From positions 310,001 to 374,000 of the forward strand of contig JADILM010000008.1 of assembly GCA_016617785.1 (NCBI GenBank): DNA of 64,000 nt. The letters run 5' to 3'. Source of the stretch: Sporobolomyces roseus (lineage: Eukaryota; Basidiomycota; Microbotryomycetes; Sporidiobolales; Sporidiobolaceae). Every line of letters starts with the position of its first letter. Position 1 is the first letter of the stretch. Positions 35,769 to 46,242 of the stretch are shown here, piece after piece. The notes below the pieces were generated by a model. It ran no database searches and was not told the origin of the DNA. It saw only the letters and a program-made list of their open reading frames with translations. Both the position numbers and the translations under genes were made by a program.

Positions 35769-38700
35769 ATGCTACAATTCCTAAGCCCGACTGAAGACTT
35801 GATCCGCCGGTTCAACCCCTTCGCACCCACCGCTCGTCGAACAGCAGATCCAAGCCCCAAGGTTCATGTCTACCACATGTTGGGTTTACCTGGTCAGATA
35901 GTTCACAGAATACCACGTCAACCTGAGCCAGCAAGTCTTCTAGGCGGTCCTCAGATGTTTCACCCTCGTTCGGTACGAGAGCGCGCGAGCCTTTTCTTTC
36001 TGCTAGTCCCAGCTGACTCGTTCCTTTCGATACCCCTTACAGTATGCGGCGTGGACAATGCTTACAGAAAGACTGGTTTATTGTCCTTCTCTCCCCTCCG
36101 GAGACCCCACCAGAACTACAGCAAAAGCAGCAAAGGATCTCAAACCTACGAAGCTCACTCGAGTTGGCTGGCAGTCCTTATATCCGCCTGAACTAGCGAC
36201 TGCATACTTGAAGAGTATGATCCAAGGCTCCTCCCGCGTGCACTACATCCCGCAGCAGCAACGACTGCTCGAAACCGAGGGAGACGTCGGGTATGCTAGG
36301 ATTACCTAGCTCATGTTCCGCTGTTAAGTCTTCTTTCGCTCTTTCTGTTCGCTCGAATCGAATCTAAGCTTCTCTTCATCGCTTAGACTTCATTCTCGCT
36401 ATCGGACTGGAATTTGGTGAAATGGAAAATTGGCCCCGAATCGTCTGCCATTCGTGACCAAAGTCTGGATTGTTCAGTCAACTTGTTGTAGATCTATTCT
36501 ATTCTTTTATTCTTTCTTCTTCTTTACCTATCTCTACTCTCATCACCACTCTCGTTAGGAATATAACTCAGTTCATTGTTATTGCCTTGACTCGAGAGTC
36601 CAACAACTACCTTCACCGTCCGCCTTCGACTCCTCCTCGTCGACCTCTCTCCAAAAGCTCGAACTCTGAACTCGCCCTCCAGCTGAAGATCGGTAGTTCC
36701 TGCACTTTTTTAACAATACCAGAGTAGTTCAACACCCCAACTATTCAACCTACGCCCACCATTCCTTCCTCTCCATCCTCAACTCATTCTTCCGATCACT
36801 CAACATCTCTTTCTTCGGTCCATCCATCTCAGCTCTCCAACTCCTCTAACGCCCTATCCGATTCCTCAGAACCTATCTTACCACCTCTCCGCCGTTCCGC
36901 CCGTACCCGTAACCTCGCTCCTACTCACTCACCTTCCGATCTCGATACCTTCCTCACCGCTCACCAGCACTCAGTCCGATTCGCTACTACCACCATGTCC
37001 GAACCCAATCTACCCACCACTCTCTCCGATATCAACAACGCTTGGAACTCCGACATCATTCCTCGTCCACCTGCTCCTCATTCAACTTCCTCTCACCAGT
37101 CAGTTGGATCGGTCAAGAGGAGACAAGCTATGGAGGAGGAGCTACTTAAGTTTCGGGAGAAACAGCGTATGGAAGCGGAGGAGTTCATGAGGAATTCGGA
37201 GGAGAATTTGCTTCTCGCTGATGAAAGGTCTGCCAAGGGTGAAGTTCTCAAGGAACAATCTACTCGCACCGGTCCTTCGCTTTCAGCAAAGGATGCGGAG
37301 ATCGGAGTAGTACTACGTGCACTCGAAGAGTTGGAGTTGAGGAAGAAGTCGCTTCAGGATATTTTGGGTGCGAAAGAAGGAGGAGGATCCATTTCCGTCA
37401 AGTCTCAAGACTTCAACACTCCCAAAGTCGCTCAGGTGACTCACAAGCTCAAGGTTACGCCTCCTGACAAGTGGGAAGGCGAGTGGGATCGTGTGAAGCT
37501 GGAGACTTGGATTAAGGCGGCTCAAGGCTACCTTGATGGGATTGGGATTGGAGAGAATGATCTTCTCCTTGAGTCTTCCCCTCTCGTTATTCACACTATC
37601 CGCTCGCTCTTCTCGAGCAAAGAGACTACTGAAGGTGTTTCTCCTCAATCCTGGTTCAACACTCGTCAGGAGCGATTCCCCTTCACCTCGGTTTCACAAG
37701 TCTTCGAGGAGATGCGCAAGTACTGGTACGACGATACGGCCGCTGAGAAGGCTTACGAGAAGTACCGTTCGGTTAAACAAGGCACCTTACGAGCTCGCGA
37801 GTTTGGTGCTCGAGTTGAAATCCTCGCGAACGCGTGCTTCGACCGAGTCCTTGATGACGCTGATCGTATCTCGACCTTCGAACGTGGACTCAACACCAAC
37901 TATCGCGACCACCTCAAGTTCGTTCGTTCGATGGCTCGTTTGGGAGGATCCGTACCTTCGACTTTCGATTCGAATGTCGAAATGGCCGCTGTCGCCGATA
38001 GTCTCGACGCTTTCAAGAATCCTCTTAAGCGCACTTCCTCTACTCTCCCTTCTACATCATCCCCTCTCGCGAAGAAGTCTGAATCGACTAACTCTTCTTC
38101 GTCTCGATCAGCTTCTTCCGCAGGTTCGGACTCGACTTGGGTCAAGGATGCTCAGAACTTCCAATCGAACTTCGCGTTATCGGACCGAGATACTTGGTTC
38201 CGAGCCGATGGTCAGAAACCCTCGTCGAGTCTTCGCTGGAACTGTGGGAACAAAGGGGAGCATTATTCGCAATCCTGCCCGAATCCTCGCAAGGATCCTA
38301 CGAAGATAAAGTTGGCACGCATCGCAAAGCTAAGTCCCGTCTCTTCTTCTTCTCCTTCGTCGAAGATTGAGGAGGAAACTAGGAGTTCGGAGTCGGGAAA
38401 AGGCAGCGACGAGTAAGAACTGACGGTTCTTATTCGTCGACTCGTAATTCGTCACCACCGCTTCTCAAGCGAACCGAAGATGAAGTGACAGCCTCTGTTT
38501 CAAGGAACAATCGATTCTCGATTTGTATCTGCGAAGACTTAGTAACAAGGTGTCTTTCTGAGGGCATTGTGGTTCCAACAACAGAGGAGTTGTTCAGTCT
38601 CGTGTGTTCAACGCTGACCGACCCTCTCATTGAAGAAACAGAATCTTCTCAACTCGACCTCGACGACTCGATTTTGGATTCGGATAGGATTCAGCAAGTC

Positions 38701-41700
38701 GCTTCGGCTTCTTGCGCGGCGGGTTTCACTCCCGTCGTTTCCTCGATGGTCTCATCTCGTACTGAAGAGGTCATGGTTCCAGAGGTTCCTTCTGAAACTG
38801 CAATGTCGTCAACTCCGTCGGTTCCCGCTCAGGATCTTTCTCTCGAGTGCCCGCCGAGAGAAAAGGAAGCTGCTTCTAAGCGCAAGCGCAAGCGAAAGCG
38901 GGCTTCAGTTAAGTCTCCCGAACCTACTATCGCTATCGACCCTCTGTCTGCAGACATCGAGATTGCAGGAACGAAAGCTCACGCTCTTTTCGATTCTGGT
39001 TCACAGGCGGACGTCATGAGCTCTTCCTTCGCTCATCGTCTTGGCCTCAACTTCCATCGACTCATTGCTCCGGTTCATGCTGAACTCGGAGCTGACGGAC
39101 ACGAGGTTCGTTTATCGATTTTTACCTCATCCTCGTGTTCGGCTGGCAATCTCTCGTTTCCGCAGAGATCGTTCTTCGTCGCTCCTCTCCCTGCTGGAGT
39201 CGACGTCATCCTTGGAGTGCCATGGCTCAAGGATACAAACTCGGCGGTCTCAGTCAAGAAAGTCTTCGTCGTTCCTCAAGGTCCTTCGGAGGATGTGATC
39301 GATTTCGAATCCGGTCGTTTCGCGATTCAACCTCAACGTAACCTGGACGATCTCGGGTTCGTCAATCGTCCAATGTCGTCTGATGAATCTCATCGATTCG
39401 CGCTGTGTGCGATTGCTGCTAATATTCCAGGTATCGACGATTACGTTGATTACGAGGAGCACAACCCTCTCCTCGACGTTGAGGATGAACTCGAAGGTCT
39501 GACGGACCTGACTCTGGAGGAAGCGGAGGAGCGGATAAAGGAACTTTTGGAACGGTTTTCCGATGTTCTCGTCGACGATCTTCCAGACCGACTTCCGCCA
39601 CTTCGACCTATCAACCACGAGATCGATCTCGATGAGGACTTCAAGCAGCACGCTCGACCGATTCCGATGCCGACTCGTTACGAAAAGCAGTGGGCTGCTC
39701 ATCTTCGCAAGTTCGTCGATACCGGTTATTGGTCGCCTGAAGCTCTCGATTCCGCCTGCGCCATGTTTGCCGTTCCGAAACATGACAAGACTCAAGCTCG
39801 TTTCGTCATCAATCTCAAACCGAGGAATCAACGGACGACTCGACGAGTTTCTCCGATTCCCGATATGCGTCAAGCTCTTGGACGTGTCGCCTCTCACAAG
39901 ATCCGTACGAAGCTGGACTTCAAGAAGGCTTACGAACAGGTCCGAGTCGCATTGGAGTCGATCCACAAGACAGGTTTCGTCACGAAAAGTGGTACTTTCG
40001 TTTCTCGAGTCATGCAACAAGGCGACTGCAACGCTCCCGACACGATGCATCGTGTATGCTACATGATGTTCAACAAGGCGATCGGTCGGTTCGTCGATGT
40101 CTTCTACGACGATGTCTTCGTCTACTCAAATTCGTATCGGGATCACCTTTGACACCTCGAAATCGTTTTCGAGACTCTTCGACACTACAAGTTCTACCTC
40201 GCTCGCGACAAGGTGCAACTCATGGCTGACTCGGTCGACGCTCTCAGTGCCGTGATTACTGACGAAGGAATCTCGGTCGATCCTTCGAAATGGGAGTCGA
40301 TTCGAAATTGGCCAACTCCTCGGAACCCTAAAGACGTCCTTCGCTTTATGGGTACGGTGCAGTGGTTAGCTGATCATCTTCCTCGACTCAGTGAACTAGC
40401 AGCTCCTCTCACCCACCTTACCGGAAAAGTCGACTGGAATTGGACTCCCGAATGCGACGTTGCGTTTGAAGCTATCAAGTCGGAGGTTCCTCGTACTCTT
40501 CGAACTCTCGATCTCAAGACCATCGACTCGGGCGAGGAGCGACTGTTCCTATTCACTGATGCGTCGATTTACGGTTGTGGAGGTTGGCTCGGACAAGGAA
40601 CATCTCGACACGACGCTCGTCCGATTCGTTTCGTTTCCGCCAAGTTCAACCCTGCTCAATACAACTACACCACGACGGATCAAGAACTTCTAGCTGTCCT
40701 TCACTGTTGCGTCAAGATGGCCGACTACTTGCGAGGAGTTCACTTTACGGTCGTTTCGGATCATATGCCGTTGCGAACCTACTGGCAGCAAGACCCAAAA
40801 CTGACTCGCAGGCACATTCGAATGTGGGAGACGCTTGCTGAGTACAATTTCGACTGGGAGTTCATTCCTGGAAAGGAAAACGACTTGGCGGATTCGCTTT
40901 CTCGACTCGCAGAATTGGGTTCGACGGTTGAGAATCTCTCTCTTCCCGTGGCTACTGAACCTTCTCCCGCAGACGATGACGATGCGCCATTCCCGGAGCG
41001 TCCCTCTCCTCGAATGACTGTCACCGTCGCCGCTCTCATTTCTGCTATCGCTGCTAAGTCTCCTTCCTCTTCATCTTCTCAGGTTCGTTCGGTTCTGACG
41101 GCGTTTCCTGATTCATTCGAAACAGGATTGCGCTCGGCTCTTCCGAACGATACTCTTGCGAAGAAGGTGTTGGCGAATCCGAGCGCATTCCCTTCGTTCG
41201 CGGTGGAGGATGGTCTCGTTTTCGTTTCGGACGACTCTGGTCTTCGACTGGTCGTCCCTCAAGGTCGTTGTTCGGAGGAGGAGGAGGTCGAAGTCACTCC
41301 AAGTCTCGTCGAATACGTGATACGGTACGCTCATCTTGTTCTCGGTCACTTTGGAGCGGCGAAAACGCTTGCGTATGTTCGTCGCTTCTTCTGGTGGCCG
41401 CAGATGCATCGTGACGTATACGATTACTGTCGTTCGTGCGAGATTTGCTGTCGAAACAAGCCCTCGTCGTCGAAACCATTCGGACAACTTCACCCTCTCG
41501 ACACTCCTTCTCGACCTTGGTCAACCGCATCCCTCGACTTCGTCGTTGGTCTTCCTCCCGTTACGCTTAACGGTGTCGTCGTCAATTCGATCCTTTCAGT
41601 CACGGACTTGCTCAGCAAGATGGTGGTCTTGATTCCCTTATCGACGACGGCGACTGCCGCTGAAGTAGCTGAGTCTTTCTTCCTTTTCGTCTATCGTCGC

Positions 41701-44152
41701 TTTGGCCTCCCTGATGCTCTCGTATCGGACAGAGACCCGAAGTTCACGTCGGCGTTTTGGAAAGCACTTTGTGCGAAGATCAATATCAAGTTGAAAATGT
41801 CAACTTCTAACCATCCTCAGACTGACGGTCGATCGGAGGTTACGAACAAGATTGTTGGAACAATTCTCAAGTGCTACTGTGAGGATTCGCCTCGCGATTG
41901 GGCAACTCGACTCTCGGAGGTGGAATTCGCGATCAACTCGGCTCCCTCGTCTGCAACCTCAACCTCTCCTTTCGAACTCGTTCTTGGCTACCTACCTTCC
42001 CCATTCCCTACCGACTCGTGGACAAGTGCTCCCGTCGACTCTGTCAACGAGCGAACGGAGGAAGCTCATCGCTCCTGGCTGAAGGCTACGGATGCTTTGA
42101 TCGCTTCTCGAGTGGATATGGTACACGAGGGTAACAAACATCGTCGTAAAGACGATGAGTCTATCTTCGCAATTGGTGGCAAAGCTTACGTTTCGACTTC
42201 AGGTTTGCGTTTTCCAGATTCTATATCCGGCAAATTCATCCCTCGCTACATCGGTCCCTTTCCCATCATCGACGCTGATCACAGCAAATCGACCTACGTT
42301 CTCACTTTCCCTCCCCATCTTCGGCTTCACCCTCGTATCCATGCTTCCAAACTTCGCCCTCATTTCGACAACGACGATTCCCGATTCCCTTCTCGCTCCC
42401 TCTCTCAGCCCGGTCCCGCTCTCTCGGCCTCCGACGCAGCTCAAGAGGAATGGTACGTTGAGAAGATAGTCGGAGATCGAATGAGGAGAGGAAAGAAGGA
42501 GTACAAGGTTCGATACGAGGGTTATTCAGCTGGAGATGATCAATGGAGACCTGGATCGGAGATCGAGTCGACCGCTCCCGACGCGCTCGAGGAGTACCTG
42601 CAGGCGCAGACCGTCGGCGCTCGACGTCTCCCTGGTCGTCGTTCGAAGAAAGTCGCAGCTTTCTTCTCGTCGATTCCCTCTCTTTTTTCGAAACCGTTGG
42701 TTTCGTCTTTAGGGGGGGTGGGTGCTAGGATTACCTAGCTCATGTTCCGCTGTTAAGTCTTCTTTCGCTCTTTCTGTTCGCTCGAATCGAATCTAAGCTT
42801 CTCTTCATCGCTTAGACTTCATTCTCGCTATCGGACTGGAATTTGGTGAAATGGAAAATTGGCCCCGAATCGTCTGCCATTCGTGACCAAAGTCTGGATT
42901 GTTCAGTCAACTTGTTGTAGATCTATTCTATTCTTTTATTCTTTCTTCTTCTTTACCTATCTCTACTCTCATCACCACTCTCGTTAGGAATATAACTCAG
43001 TTCATTGTTATTGCCTTGACTCGAGAGTCCAACAACTACCTTCACCGTCCGCCTTCGACTCCTCCTCGTCGACCTCTCTCCAAAAGCTCGAACTCTGAAC
43101 TCGCCCTCCAGCTGAAGATCGGTAGTTCCTGCAGGGTACAAACATTTCTTCGCAAATTGTGGACAACACTGCTGACGCTGAACCCGTTCTGTAGCGACTC
43201 TGTCATGTACAATATACTCGCGCCACTCGTCGATATGCTCAATCAGCTCATAGCGCCGCAGTTCCGTCCTTACGTTCTGATTGGTATTCAGCATCAAACG
43301 AGCGTAAAGCCGCTACGCCACCGTCAGTGATATGCCCGTCTCTTACAAAAAAATCAGCTCAAGAATATCGTAACAGCTGTCATCGCGCTCGATCATGTTC
43401 TCACACTGCTCGATCGTCGAGGCTTTACATCGCACACTGCAGCCGACTATCGACGTTCCCGCATTCAACTTGTGATAGTAGAAGAGAAGGTTAGCTCACT
43501 AGCACTGTGACACGGATAACGCGACTCAGTTTTTCATGCACAGAAAGCGGGATATGTTCGACCGGACGGATGGGATTTCTCTTTTCGTGAAGAGAACGCT
43601 GAGAAATTGCTCCCGCAGGTCATGATGTGCTTCTACCGTCCTTTCAGCTTCTATCATAGCCAGCAGGTCAACTGAAGCCCTCGATAAGTGCAGGTACGCT
43701 CGTTGGTTCGACTGTCAGCGCTTCATCTTGACAGATTACGAGCAAGCTATCGCCGTACATCTTAGGAAACAAACGCGAGCCACCGACCCTCTGTTCACGG
43801 CGACACACACCTGCTATCATCCTCGAGGAGGCTACGCTGACCCTGCCGACGCTATGTACAACCCGATGAGCATGGGCTTGCGAAATTCGATTTCGTTCAT
43901 GGCGATTTCAGCGCTCAACGAACTCGGCATTCTCGATTACACCGTGAGTCGCACTTTTGACTACTCTCAATCTTGAGTTCCAGTGAAGAGCTATTCGCCC
44001 CATGCATTGCAGAAGATGCTCATTCCACGATACCTTGTTCAGCAAGTTGTAGATGTGAGCATGCGATCTCAAACTTCCGACTCTTTAGATCTCAGCACTG
44101 ATAGCTTGACATCTGTTTCCAGTCAAGAGTAACGGCTATCATGAACGCTTGA
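35769..44152 (+). CDS. Unrecognised 370-aa protein whose second intron holds a complete retrotransposon
   Basis: Eight exons join without a stop into 370 codons: 35769-35972, 36043-36290, 43195-43322, 43377-43489, 43544-43666, 43719-43943, 44013-44054 and 44123-44152. Exon 2 ends in phase 2 at GG; intron 2 is 36291-43194 (6,904 nt) and contains a 6,840-bp Ty3 element inserted 3 nt inside the intron. Before insertion the intron was about 59 nt, with CTGAC and TAG near its end. Conserved-looking segments include KVHVYHMLGLPGQIVHRIPR, YAAWTMLTERLVYCPSLPS, LVDMLNQLIAPQFRPYVLIG, RFILTDYEQAIAVHLRKQT and MGLRNSISFMAISALNELG. RFILTDYEQAI-type strings also occur in basidiomycete kinase-like families, but I do not assign a function. 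Exon 4 and 5 borders rest on phase consistency. Whether the giant intron is spliced is unknown. Confidence 0.6.
36289..36293 (+). repeat. Target-site duplication, left copy (GGGTA)
   Basis: This 5-bp direct repeat is matched at 43134-43138, the usual length for Ty3/gypsy integrases. It spans the exon 2/intron 2 junction (GG|GTA) of the host gene. Confidence 0.93.
36294..36704 (+). repeat. 5' LTR
   Basis: This 411-bp direct repeat matches 42723-43133 throughout, as far as can be read by eye. It begins TGCTAGGATTACC and ends GGTAGTTCCTGCA. It should carry the element's promoter and polyadenylation signals. An open frame from 36470 (MFSQLVVDLFYSF) runs through the LTR to a TAG at 36725-36727. 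Confidence 0.97.
36705..36994 (+). other. Leader between 5' LTR and gag
   Basis: This 290-bp leader has no TGG-initiated tRNA primer-binding site directly next to the LTR; the LTR is followed by CTTTTTTAACAATACC. After a TAG at 36725-36727 the gag frame is open all the way to the gag ATG, encoding a Ser/Pro/Thr-rich stretch with PPLRRSARTRNLAP. Either translation starts upstream at a non-AUG codon or this stretch is leader only. Confidence 0.5.
36995..38416 (+). CDS. gag: gag of the Ty3/gypsy element
   Basis: This structural polyprotein has 473 residues from the ATG at 36995 to the TAA at 38414-38416. Its N-terminal third is charged and helical (MEEELLKFREKQRMEAEEF). The central capsid-like region contains DKWEGEWDRVKLETWIKAAQ, then FEEMRKYWYDD and GTLRAREFGARVEILANAC, the usual gag core of fungal Ty3 elements. 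Near the end is a zinc knuckle whose second to fourth ligands are present (WNCGNKGEHYSQSC), but the expected first Cys is Arg (codon CGC where TGC would be expected). The stop lies inside the hairpin of the frameshift signal. Gag is made by normal termination and Gag-Pol by -1 frameshifting. Confidence 0.9.
   Translation: MSEPNLPTTLSDINNAWNSDIIPRPPAPHSTSSHQSVGSVKRRQAMEEELLKFREKQRMEAEEFMRNSEENLLLADERSAKGEVLKEQSTRTGPSLSAKDAEIGVVLRALEELELRKKSLQDILGAKEGGGSISVKSQDFNTPKVAQVTHKLKVTPPDKWEGEWDRVKLETWIKAAQGYLDGIGIGENDLLLESSPLVIHTIRSLFSSKETTEGVSPQSWFNTRQERFPFTSVSQVFEEMRKYWYDDTAAEKAYEKYRSVKQGTLRAREFGARVEILANACFDRVLDDADRISTFERGLNTNYRDHLKFVRSMARLGGSVPSTFDSNVEMAAVADSLDAFKNPLKRTSSTLPSTSSPLAKKSESTNSSSSRSASSAGSDSTWVKDAQNFQSNFALSDRDTWFRADGQKPSSSLRWNCGNKGEHYSQSCPNPRKDPTKIKLARIAKLSPVSSSSPSSKIEEETRSSESGKGSDE
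38395..38439 (+). promoter_or_regulatory. -1 ribosomal frameshift signal: GGGAAAA slippery site plus hairpin
   Basis: The heptamer GGGAAAA (38395-38401) is in the gag frame as G GGA AAA, a classic X XXY YYZ slippery site. After a 5-nt spacer (38402-38406) comes a stem of 14 base pairs: 38407-38420 pairs with 38426-38439, all Watson-Crick except one G-U (38413-38433), closed by a 5-nt loop TGACG. The gag TAA (38414-38416) is within the 5' arm. A -1 shift here enters exactly the frame that encodes protease and reverse transcriptase. Spacing and stem match known -1 frameshift signals; use in vivo is inferred. Confidence 0.85.
38401..42738 (+). pseudogene. pol: pol (PR-RT-RH-IN-chromodomain), interrupted by one TGA
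   Basis: This is the -1 frame after the slippery site, open to 40150-40152 (TGA) and then open in the same frame to a TAG at 42736-42738. Protease: ALFDSGSQADVMS (active site DSG). Reverse transcriptase: SACAMFAVPKHD, LDFKKAYEQVRV, VMQQGDCNAP and VFYDDVFVYS with the catalytic Asp pair. The TGA falls just after that motif (YRDHL-stop-HLEIVFETLR). RNase H: LFTDASIYGCGGWL, TTDQELLAVLHC and VVSDHMPLR. Integrase: an HHCC zinc finger (AHLVLGH, CRSCEICC) and the D,D-35-E core (SLDFVVGL, VSDRDPKFTSAFW, HPQTDGRSEVTNK). The C-terminus is a chromodomain (EWYVEKIVGDR, YKVRYEGYS, DQWRPG). The lone stop makes this copy defective unless it is read through. Confidence 0.92.
42710..42722 (+). other. Polypurine tract before the 3' LTR
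   Basis: The purine-rich run AGGGGGGGTGGG abuts the 3' LTR and is the expected primer site for plus-strand synthesis. It overlaps the end of the pol reading frame. Confidence 0.75.
42723..43133 (+). repeat. 3' LTR
   Basis: This is the second 411-bp copy, preceded by a purine run. The last codons and the TAG of pol (42736-42738) lie inside this LTR. It is followed directly by the target-site duplication. Confidence 0.97.
43134..43138 (+). repeat. Target-site duplication, right copy (GGGTA)
   Basis: This is the right-hand copy of the 5-bp duplication, directly after the terminal CA of the 3' LTR. It is followed by the rest of the original host intron (43139-43194). Confidence 0.93.
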
Positions 44153-44424
44153 CCAGCTGTAGATCTTGCGAATGAAACACCTGGTTTCCTCAGCCGGAGT
44201 TGAATGGTGGTCCAATTGCTCCTTCCGCCCTGCCTTGCAAAGCTGAACGATATTTTCCGATACCTTACTCACACGTCGTCGAGTGCCTCTGAGAACCACC
44301 TTACTTCCAACATTGTTTCTTTCGAAAGTACTACACGAGAAAGAGACAGAGACAGAGAACAGAGGAGAGTACGTAAAAGAGAGAGAGCAACATACAGCAC
44401 GACTAGCACACAACGACGAGAAGA
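44153..44424. other. Spacer between the split host gene and the RAD16-like fragment
   Basis: These 272 bp are purine-rich (GAGA repeats at 44335-44390). No gene was recognised. Confidence 0.4.
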
Positions 44425-45000
44425 TTACAAGCTGAACAAGAAAGCGAGATCTTCGGGAGAGAGACGTCCCATCGCTTTATCGTCGTCTCCCAAAGCCGAT
44501 GCAGCGAGATTCTCCTTCTTCTTCTGGAGTTCTAGGATACGAGATTCAATACTCTTCTCGATGACGAGGCGAGTGACTTTGATCGGGCGATCTATAGAGG
44601 AAAAGGGGAAATCAGTTGTGAGAACTTGCGAAACGACGACGACGACAATGTGGTGGAGAGGAGGAAAGGTAGAAGTCTGATCTAGCGAGTCTCTCTTTTG
44701 GAATCCAACTATTCTCTCATCTATCTCTCTCTCTCTCTCGTGAGGAACGCCGGACAGAACCATTCCATCATAACAATCTTCCTCCACCCATCTCTTCTAC
44801 TTCCTGTGCGACAGAGATGGAGAGAGTAGGCTTACGTTGTCCGAGTCGATGGCAACGATCCATAGCTTGTAGTTCGACAGCAGCTAGAAAAGAGAAAACG
44901 GGAAAACGGGAAAATCACAAGTTCAAGTCAGTTTCAACATCAGTGATCGATGAGCGACTCGATGCTCACGGTTCCACCGGGTCAAGCAGCGCACCTCGAG
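44425..45000 (-). pseudogene. Orphan 3' fragment of a RAD16-like gene
   Basis: Reading leftwards, an exon ending near 44881 encodes AVELQAMDRCHRLGQ, the helicase motif VI region of Rad16. After an intron of roughly 235 nt comes HRPIKVTRLVIEKS, then IESRILELQKKKENLAA and GRLSPEDLAFLFSL with a TAA at 44425, the Rad16 C-terminus. Upstream (about 44972-45000) a splice donor and the sequence CTTGACCCGGTGGAACC resemble a codon run for LDPWWNP that has lost 2 nt. Further upstream the Rad16 pattern is gone and the 3' end of an F-box-like gene begins at 45089 on the same strand. So the N-terminus, ATPase core and RING are missing. It is a partial duplicate or relic; the 5' part of a RAD16 gene lies at 1-1843. 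Confidence 0.75.
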
Positions 45001-45088
45001 AACTCCCTCGTGCTCCAACATCGTCGTCGTCGAGAACCACCGCTCGAGGTGTCCCCTCGCAAAGTCGAATTCGAGTGGCGATGCTTCA

Positions 45089-46242
45089 TCAATCCAATCC
45101 AATCTTTCGCCTCTTCATCCTATTCCAGAAATCTTGTGAGATACCCGAATCCGACATCCATGAAATCGGTTGTTCTTCTCGAACAACTTCGACGTTCTTC
45201 TTGTGACATGCGAGTGATAATCGGTGGAGGGCGAATTCGAACCTATCAGAGGAGGTAGGGTTGGCGAGAGAGCTGAGAGGAAGGTAGAAGAGTGTAGGAA
45301 CGGAAGAAGAGGGTCGCCACGAGAGATTGTGAGCGAGATCTTCGAGTACGTCGACAGCTTCCAAATCGTTCCGATCCAGCATCAAGCGTACATTCCTTCC
45401 CTCGGGAAGCTCAGCGGCTTCCACGGTAACGTCGAAGAGAGTGAACGAATTGACGGTACGAACGAAGTCCTCCGGTAGTTTCGAAATGATGTCCAAGTCG
45501 AGAGACAGCATTTCTAGCTGAGGAGTGATACCAGAGAGCGCCAGAGAGAGGACCTGAGAGGCGGGGCGACCCTGTGACGAATACAGTAGAGCGCGAAGGT
45601 TGGGGAGAGACTCCGGAAGCATGATTCTTTCTGCATTGTTCACCCACAAGAGCTGCATCTCTGCGAGTTTGGGTAGAGAGAGGCGACCAGATTGCGACAT
45701 TGTGAGCGATGCGAGTCGTAGGGTCCGTAGGTCTGTGAAGGTTTCGAAAAAGAATGAGTACGGCCGGCGGCAGGCCTCGAAGAGAAGAATAGCTTACTGC
45801 TGAGCGGGGACAGATCCGCTAGATCTAGACTCCCCTTGAACTCCCAAATCGTGAGAGAGCGTATCCCGCTGTACTCGACGCTGAGTGCTCCCGGGGCAGG
45901 AACGACGAAATCGAAGCGAAGGAAAACAAGGTCCTCCGCTGGAAACGCTTCGTCGCAGTCCCTACAGTATCGCTGATCCCATGCGGCTCGGTCAAGTCGA
46001 TTCGTATACCTGGCTACGGCGAAGAGGAGAGGTTGAGCGACCTCTCGAAACAGGCGAGAGACTCCGCAGAGAGAGCGAAGGATGCTTTGCCGCTCCTCAT
46101 AGGTAGTCGAGTTGTAGTGATGTGGTGCTGTAGATTCGATGATCGCTTGAACGAGTTCGAAAGGGAGGTAAGAGAAGGGACGATAGGATGAGGAAGGGGA
46201 GGGAGAATCGGGGGAAACGGGAGGAGGTAGTGAGGATGACAT
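45089..46242 (-). CDS. F-box-like/LRR protein, paralogue 2
   Basis: This is the paralogue of the gene at 31440-32587, and its function is unknown beyond the F-box-like fold. The start at 46242 (MSSSLPPPVSPDSPSPSSS) is followed by FSYLPFELVQAIIESTA and ILRSLCGVSRLFREVAQPLLFAVA. One intron (near 45800-45736) joins LS to NLRTLRLASLTMS. The leucine-rich C-terminal half has LPNLRALLYS, LEMLSLDLDIISKLPEDFV and FTLFDVTVEAAELPEG. It ends VREEQPISWMSDSGISQDFW then a basic tail. The two copies lie ~13 kb apart on the same strand, on either side of the retrotransposon, so this is dispersed rather than tandem duplication. The F-box half differs more between the copies than the C-terminal motif does. Confidence 0.66.

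What the first reader, a model, noticed from the sequence alone, without database searches (positions are those of the whole stretch)
36289..43194. Retrotransposon landed 3 nt inside an intron, exactly on the 5' splice site, and the host frame survived
The target duplication GGGTA covers the exon-intron border GG|GTA. The original donor GTACAA was replaced by GTATGC, made from the duplication plus the first LTR bases, which is arguably a better donor. Outside the 6,904-nt intron all eight exons join into 370 codons without a stop. The element may therefore be tolerated as a giant intron in a genome of ~60-nt introns, or its LTR may end transcription and knock the gene out.
Basis: partly seen in the sequence, partly recalled or inferred. 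Interest (0 to 1): 0.82.

Follow-up and report, generated by a model that had tools for sequence, protein, structure and literature searches.

The report
Jumping gene sitting on splice site
In a red yeast, a recently moved 6.8-kb jumping element landed by chance on the start of a small intron and happened to rebuild a usable splice signal there, but it most likely still cripples the host gene, much as a similar insertion has been shown to do in an insect.

Summary
A complete chromodomain Ty3/gypsy LTR element (36294-43133; two identical 411-nt LTRs, target duplication GGGTA) lies in sense orientation 3 nt inside intron 2 of a host gene. The donor GTACAA has become GTATGC, which scores better against this genome's own introns. 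Three paralogs carry the same intron at the same position and phase, 58-60 nt long, so the gene model at the junction is sound. The genome matches the published Sporobolomyces roseus CGMCC 2.4355 assembly. 'Tolerated as a giant intron' is not supported. The longest of 229 confidently predicted introns is 285 nt (lengths to 1,500 allowed). The native donor stands again behind the element, so the old 59-nt intron can be spliced alone. Reading or splicing into the LTR truncates the protein. The intact frame proves nothing, because the LTRs are too young for decay. Best explanation: a recent chance insertion that abolishes or strongly reduces full-length product; this RNA step is inferred. A near-exact precedent exists: Yaoer in fall armyworm chitin synthase 2, where correctly spliced transcript was 12 times less abundant. 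RNA-seq made by the assembly's authors would settle it. New member of a known kind.

The parts
35769..35972 (+). host gene exon 1
   Evidence: start ATG, open frame; the paralog at C8:304-306 kb also starts MLQ; predicted ab initio
36043..36290 (+). host gene exon 2, ends ...GACGTCGG, phase 2
   Evidence: three paralogs end this exon at the same codon ('EGDVG' / 'EGDIG') and phase; this end is chosen ab initio, while reads on to a stop at 36309
36289..36293 (+). target site duplication, copy 1: GG (exon) + GTA (intron)
   Evidence: sequence
36291..36296 (+). hybrid 5' splice site GTATGC (GTA from the duplication, TGC from the LTR)
   Evidence: score 3.17, 20 of 219 introns lower
36294..36704 (+). 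5' LTR, 411 nt
   Evidence: identical to the 3' LTR, 0 of 411 differences
36377..36386 (+). candidate acceptor inside the LTR (would give a 96-nt intron 36291-36386)
   Evidence: ab initio choice, where introns were capped at 160 nt; not chosen; score at the 14th percentile; 1468 of 3000 random positions have an equally good acceptor nearby, so ordinary
36995..38416 (+). gag (473 aa)
   Evidence: Retrotrans_gag PF03732, E 5.7e-05, 23.7 bits, just under the cut-off 24.1
38485..40152 (+). pol part 1: protease and reverse transcriptase, ends at a stop inside the RT
   Evidence: gag-asp_proteas, RVT_1; the copy on C1 is open over 1451 codons
40213..42738 (+). pol part 2: RNase H, integrase, SH3 (Tf2-1-like), chromodomain; same frame as part 1
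   Evidence: RT_RNaseH, Integrase_H2C2, rve, SH3_Tf2-1, Chromo, all above curated cut-offs
42723..43133 (+). 3' LTR, 411 nt
43134..43138 (+). target site duplication, copy 2
43136..43194 (+). the original 59-nt intron 2, complete, with its own donor GTACAA and acceptor CTGTAG
   Evidence: sequence; native acceptor at the 50th percentile of 219 introns, native donor with 1 of 219 lower
43195..43322 (+). host gene exon 3
   Evidence: paralogs and ab initio; one search ended it at 43303
43377..43489 (+). host gene exon 4
   Evidence: paralogs and ab initio
43544..43626 (+). host gene exon 5
   Evidence: paralogs and ab initio
43694..43943 (+). host gene exon 6
   Evidence: paralogs and ab initio
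44013..44054 (+). host gene exon 7
   Evidence: ab initio; frame
44123..44152 (+). host gene exon 8 with stop
   Evidence: ab initio (differs); frame; least certain exon

Best explanation
A chromodomain Ty3/gypsy LTR element of a low-copy, recently active family inserted by chance, in sense orientation, three bases inside intron 2 of a gene of the red yeast Sporobolomyces roseus. Its 5-bp duplication happened to rebuild a usable donor at exon 2 and to leave the complete old intron downstream of the element. (Shown: anatomy, duplication, donors, age class, conserved intron.) The gene's transcripts then mostly do one of three things. They end in the sense-oriented LTR, or stay unspliced at exon 2, or splice exon 2 to an LTR acceptor, while the old 59-nt intron can be removed on its own. 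The product then stops after 156-243 residues and lacks everything encoded beyond exon 2 (the normal protein has 365). Correct joining of exon 2 to exon 3 over 6.9 kb is at most a minor event, so the allele is null or leaky. (Inferred: all RNA-level steps.)
For: Element and duplication. Intron position and phase shared with three paralogs, 58, 60 and 59 nt there. Short-intron genome: 222 of 229 confident introns are at most 100 nt, longest 285, none over 500 (lengths over 1,500 could not be seen); published mean 86.54 bp (PMC8643702, passage). Truncated products of 156, 161 and 243 aa. Recent: identical LTRs here and in the C1 copy, copies 0.94% apart, and a solo LTR on C5 that matches the 207-nt LTR stretch of the query exactly. 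No sign of splice-site preference: the three other readable duplications are CTTCG, AGATT and CATTG in the element's sense. The other full-length copy appears to lie inside a coding exon in sense orientation (open frame only), so gene-breaking insertions seem to persist in this strain. Precedent: Yaoer at the exon 21/intron 21 border of SfCHS2, with correctly spliced transcript 12 times less abundant (PMC11249258, section 9 read).
Against: No RNA data were examined. No AATAAA or ATTAAA lies in the LTR, so its 3'-end activity rests on the general LTR life cycle. The new donor is better than the native one. The rebuilt native donor is very weak, so separate removal of the 59-nt intron may be inefficient. 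The native acceptor (7.19) outscores all 17 AGs scored in the first 450 nt of the giant intron (best 6.31). The LTR acceptor is of chance quality (1468 of 3000 random positions as good).
Confidence: 0.75

Rival explanations
1. Tolerated giant intron: the spliceosome pairs GTATGC at 36291 with the native acceptor at 43194 efficiently, and the gene still works.
For: All eight exons are intact. The donor improved from 1 of 219 to 20 of 219 introns scoring lower. The native acceptor is average (50th percentile) and only 10 of 347 upstream AGs score as high. In soybean FT2a an intron with a 6.2-kb LTR element is spliced out, although expression is reduced (PMC4719747, passages).
Against: The intron would be 24 times longer than the longest of 229 sampled (cap 1,500). 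Two sense LTRs must be transcribed through. The intact frame is expected at this age anyway. In the closest precedent correctly spliced transcript was 12 times less abundant.
Confidence: 0.1
2. The gene was already weakly expressed or dispensable before the insertion, so the element changed little.
For: The native intron 2 donor has 1 of 219 introns below it and the exon 5 donor 4 of 219. The profile search returned two proteins at E up to 0.1 (of 7,069 candidates): an S. roseus JCM5353 protein that is the orthologue of another paralog (68% to the one at C8:374 kb) and a Rhodotorula protein 40% identical to the host protein over 213 residues. No close orthologue of the host gene was among them.
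Against: The exons carry no stop or frameshift over 365 codons, and 24 columns are invariant over all six aligned family members, the host included. The paralog at C8:304-306 kb also has weak donors, so weak donors may be normal here. The protein search sees only predicted proteins of 0.55 to 1.75 times the length.
Confidence: 0.1
3. Split gene: the 5' LTR ends an N-terminal message and the 3' LTR starts a second message that gives the C-terminal half from an ATG in exon 3.
For: An in-frame ATG lies at 43205 in exon 3, and only two short upstream ATG frames (4 and 11 codons) precede it from the 3' LTR start.
Against: No promoter evidence in the LTR was obtained. The fragments would divide the conserved core. 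Nothing shows that the halves act.
Confidence: 0.04
4. The element targets splice donors or introns.
For: One insertion exactly on a donor.
Against: The three other readable duplications are CTTCG, AGATT and CATTG, and the C1 copy appears exonic. A donor hit has about 0.9% chance per insertion. The sample is small.
Confidence: 0.01

Closest known systems
Yaoer LTR retrotransposon in Spodoptera frugiperda SfCHS2 (PMC11249258)
   Same: A 6,427-bp LTR element with a 5-bp duplication across an exon-intron border. A donor GT arises at the first duplication (there from intron G plus LTR T), the original donor is restored after the second LTR, and an in-frame stop lies in the LTR (section 9 read; supplement legend passages).
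   Different: Insect host, and transcripts were measured. There the duplication holds 4 exon bases and 1 intron base; here it holds 2 and 3. Here no RNA was measured, and the host is a yeast with a median confident intron of 66 nt.
Chromoviruses (chromodomain Ty3/gypsy elements) of fungi, with relatives in Sporobolomyces and Rhodosporidiobolus
   Same: LTRs, gag, protease-RT-RNase H-integrase order, Tf2-1-like SH3 and chromodomain. A protein 99% identical over the 841 residues searched exists in an ENA contig; named relatives include S. johnsonii (57-59% for its best three) and R. odoratus (55-57% for its best three) (83 hits at E up to 1e-50 among the 7,992 candidates scored). An earlier survey counted 6 gypsy copies in S. 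roseus (PMC2864245, passage).
   Different: Clade within the chromoviruses not determined. This copy has a stop inside the RT.
SORE-1 copia element in intron 1 of soybean FT2a (PMC4719747)
   Same: A 6,224-bp LTR element inside an intron (passages).
   Different: Inside the intron, not described in the passages seen as on the splice site. The intron is still spliced out, and expression falls through transcriptional repression.
Introners (PMC9860276)
   Same: Some recruit a splice site from the target duplication (passages).
   Different: Introners are many copies that create introns; here an old intron is enlarged by one full element.

Membership tests
Chromovirus (Ty3/gypsy LTR element) | two long terminal repeats with TG...CA and a short target duplication | tested here: met
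   411 nt, 0 differences, GGGTA on both sides
Chromovirus (Ty3/gypsy LTR element) | pol order protease-RT-RNase H-integrase | tested here: met
   Pfam matches in that order over 38485-42738
Chromovirus (Ty3/gypsy LTR element) | chromodomain at the C-terminus of integrase | tested here: met
   PF00385, E 4.4e-10, residues 749-797 of 841
Chromovirus (Ty3/gypsy LTR element) | primer binding site next to the 5' LTR | not tested
   no obvious tRNA-type TGG site read by eye after 36704; self-priming not tested
Splice-site insertion of the Yaoer type | target duplication spans the exon-intron border and gives a donor on both sides of the element | tested here: met
   GG|GTA twice; GTATGC at 36291 and GTACAA at 43136
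Splice-site insertion of the Yaoer type | mixed transcripts with strongly reduced correct splicing | not testable with these tools
   no reads held here
Introner | creates a new intron at a formerly intronless site | tested here: not met
   the same intron exists in three paralogs at 58-60 nt
Introner | many copies of the same sequence as introns | tested here: not met
   seven LTR matches at five places in the genome (a lower bound by the tool's own note); the other full-length copy appears exonic

The most novel reading that the evidence does not exclude
The 6.9-kb intron with an entire sense-oriented LTR element, two LTRs included, is spliced out accurately in a yeast whose confident introns have a median of 66 nt, because the insertion improved the donor. 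Intron-defined splicing and LTR 3'-end formation would then both be overridden, and the insertion would have strengthened a weak splice site.
Probability: 0.08. Interest if true: 0.65.

Novelty: new member of a known kind. Interest (0 to 1): 0.3.

Why it matters
It is a clean natural test of how a short-intron yeast treats a very long intron. The weak native donor, the improved hybrid donor and the intact short intron compete in one transcript, three paralogs show the unoccupied form of the intron, and transcriptome reads of the strain were generated by the assembly's authors. If the giant intron were spliced, limits on intron length in such fungi would need revision. If not, it is one more insertional mutation.

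Tried and rejected
My first exon model (360 aa) placed two 41-nt introns after exon 5 and other borders for exons 3 and 4. Comparison with paralogs showed these to be wrong and they were replaced. The searches used that model; one search found nothing at E up to 1 among 2,872 candidates, one search found the paralogs, and only the profile found relatives elsewhere. In one search the first exon of the paralog at C8:304-306 kb was one base too long, so its printed translation is out of frame; one search has it right.

Of the four paralog places, three were modelled (the one at C4 only looked at). The models of the 374-kb and 421-kb paralogs lack the N-terminus. The 421-kb one showed an in-frame stop early in its first modelled exon, and that part was cut off before alignments A1 and A2 (248 of 294 residues used).

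The first run of the gene finder made introns too cheap (3,503 in two 'genes') and was discarded. One search used a higher intron cost and a cap of 160 nt (760 introns; the unfiltered lengths reach the cap, 95th percentile 133). One search kept 219 of those 760. One search allowed lengths up to 1,500 and kept 229 of 630. Host-gene and element introns were left out of those two sets. No annotation or RNA was at hand to check the predictions.

A special acceptor in the LTR was rejected as special: 1468 of 3000 random positions have one as good within 45-110 nt. A splice-site preference of the element was rejected on a small sample. Pfam and PDB gave no family for the host protein (the only Pfam line, Epiplasmin, is far below its cut-off). 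Rfam and ARAGORN found nothing in the window. Paper searches for such a case: (no paper), listings only unless stated. I saw no fungal case in the titles and abstract starts listed, but the lists were capped, and the library lacks most subscription journals.

Full report
WHAT IS THERE. The window lies at C8:310001-374000 of a genome of 22,396,975 bases in 15 contigs. Total size, contig number, longest contig (4,742,556) and the length of C4 (2,126,566) equal the figures published for Sporobolomyces roseus CGMCC 2.4355 (table size, scaffold count, longest scaffold, N50; PMC8643702, passages), a carotenoid-forming basidiomycete yeast. Between 36294 and 43133 lies a 6,840-nt LTR element. Its LTRs are 411 nt with no difference, it is flanked by GGGTA on both sides, and gag (just under the Pfam cut-off), protease, RT, RNase H, integrase, a Tf2-1-like SH3 and a chromodomain follow in order. 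It is a chromovirus. Pol is interrupted by one stop at 40150-40152. The other full-length copy found, on C1, is open over 1,451 codons, differs at 64 of 6,838 aligned positions and also has identical LTRs.

THE HOST GENE. Exons 1-2 lie upstream and exons 3-8 downstream, all on the element's strand. Three of the four paralog places found (C8:304-306 kb, 374 kb and 421 kb) were modelled by hand, two of them without their N-terminus. All three have an intron at the same residue (after 'EGD[VI]G') and phase as the hit intron; it is 58, 60 and 59 nt there. The introns after exons 3, 4 and 5 are shared too. The fourth, weak relative on C4 also seems to have an intron there by eye (not modelled). A gene finder trained only on this genome, window included, returned the same exons 3-8 without knowledge of the paralogs, and ended the upstream gene at a stop in the LTR; it linked exons 3-8 to part of pol by a 742-nt intron, which I take for an artefact. 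The deposited S. roseus JCM5353 protein, 68% identical to the 374-kb paralog, runs straight through this junction. The protein has no Pfam or PDB relative. Its only relatives in 5.8 billion proteins at E up to 0.1 were that protein and one of Rhodotorula kratochvilovae (2 of 7,069 candidates).

THE SPLICE SITE. Of 219 confident introns, 97% have G at +5. The native donor GTACAA lacks it and has one intron below it; the hybrid GTATGC has it and has 20 below. Two of the paralogs use GTGAGT (173 of 219 lower) and the third the weak GCGAGT (4 of 219 lower). The second copy of the duplication rebuilds the native donor at 43136, so the old intron stands complete behind the element.

WHAT IT PROBABLY DOES. 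Of 229 confident introns, 222 are at most 100 nt, 5 are 101-160, 2 are 161-500 (242 and 285) and none is longer (nothing above 1,500 could be seen). The published mean is 86.54 bp. The transcript offers a 6,904-nt intron, a 59-nt intron with a poor donor, and LTR acceptors of ordinary quality (one 96 nt away at the 14th percentile, the best of 17 within 450 nt at 201 nt and the 28th). Retention or LTR splicing ends the protein at 156 or 161 residues, or 243 if a second LTR intron is used. The LTR lies in sense orientation. Because the family has moved recently, the same 411-nt sequence should be able to form 3' ends in the 3' position; that it does so in the 5' position for a transcript starting upstream is inference from general LTR biology (recalled), and no AATAAA was found. 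I therefore expect a null or leaky allele.

WHY THE INTACT FRAME IS SILENT. Zero differences in 411 LTR sites put a 95% upper bound of 0.0036 substitutions per site per lineage. That means at most 4 substitutions and 0.16 new stops in the 1,098-nt coding sequence since insertion. A dead gene would look the same.

WHY THE PLACE IS CHANCE. With 8,124 genes and 5.98 introns each, about 0.9% of random insertions would have a 5-nt duplication that contains a donor GT. Other duplications in the family, in the element's sense, are CTTCG (C1), AGATT (C5) and CATTG (C9; by eye); the C4 remnant showed none by eye. The C1 copy appears to interrupt a coding exon in sense orientation: a long open frame runs across the empty site; no homology search was made there.

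KNOWN CASES. The Yaoer element in the fall armyworm is nearly the same event, on the exon 21/intron 21 border of SfCHS2. It makes a donor GT from the duplication and the LTR, restores the original donor behind the element, and gives both correct and element-bearing transcripts; the correct one was 12 times less abundant than in the susceptible strain (section 9; legend passages). An LTR element in soybean FT2a intron 1 is spliced out (passages). The reference list in PMC2586383 has the 412 element in an exon of Drosophila vermilion as spliced from the precursor (title seen there), and that of PMC4719747 has retrotransposons in maize waxy (title seen there). The principle is therefore known; new here are the yeast host with tiny introns and the paralogs as comparison.

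VERDICT. The most likely effect is strong loss of full-length product. It is ordinary in kind, neat in detail and directly testable with transcriptome reads reported for this strain.

Noticed in passing
C1:2614-2621 kb (L020): The second full-length copy of the element appears to interrupt a coding exon of a membrane-protein-like gene (by eye; not searched), in the gene's sense; an open frame is continuous across the empty site.
   Followed up: partly
whole genome: The published repeat table for this assembly gives only 930 bp of LTR sequence, whereas at least two 6.8-kb copies of this family and four RT-RNase H loci are present.
   Followed up: partly
C8:304-306 kb, 345-354 kb, 374 kb, 421 kb: A dispersed gene family of unknown function, relatives found only in Sporobolomyces and Rhodotorula (2 hits); a weaker match on C4:1662656-1662871.
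   Followed up: partly
L018 (C8:418.5-423.5 kb): The 421-kb paralog shows an in-frame stop early in my first modelled exon; a pseudogene, a missed intron or a wrong model.
   Followed up: no
window 44298-45625: The segment just downstream of the host gene has 92-95% identical stretches on both sides of the paralog at C8:304-306 kb, in opposite orientations (L016).
   Followed up: no
L016 (C8:303-309 kb): The paralog's version of the same intron has a GC-AG donor (GCGAGT), which suggests that this junction tolerates poor donors.
   Followed up: no
window 40150-40152: Single stop inside the RT of a copy whose LTRs are still identical; the other copy is open there, and a protein of 1,389 aa, 99% identical over the 841 residues searched, exists in an ENA contig.
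   Followed up: partly
C5:941155-941361 (L003): Solo LTR (412 nt between its end motifs) whose 207 nt covered by the query are 100% identical to this element, with the same 5 bases on both sides: a recent LTR-LTR recombination is likely.
   Followed up: partly
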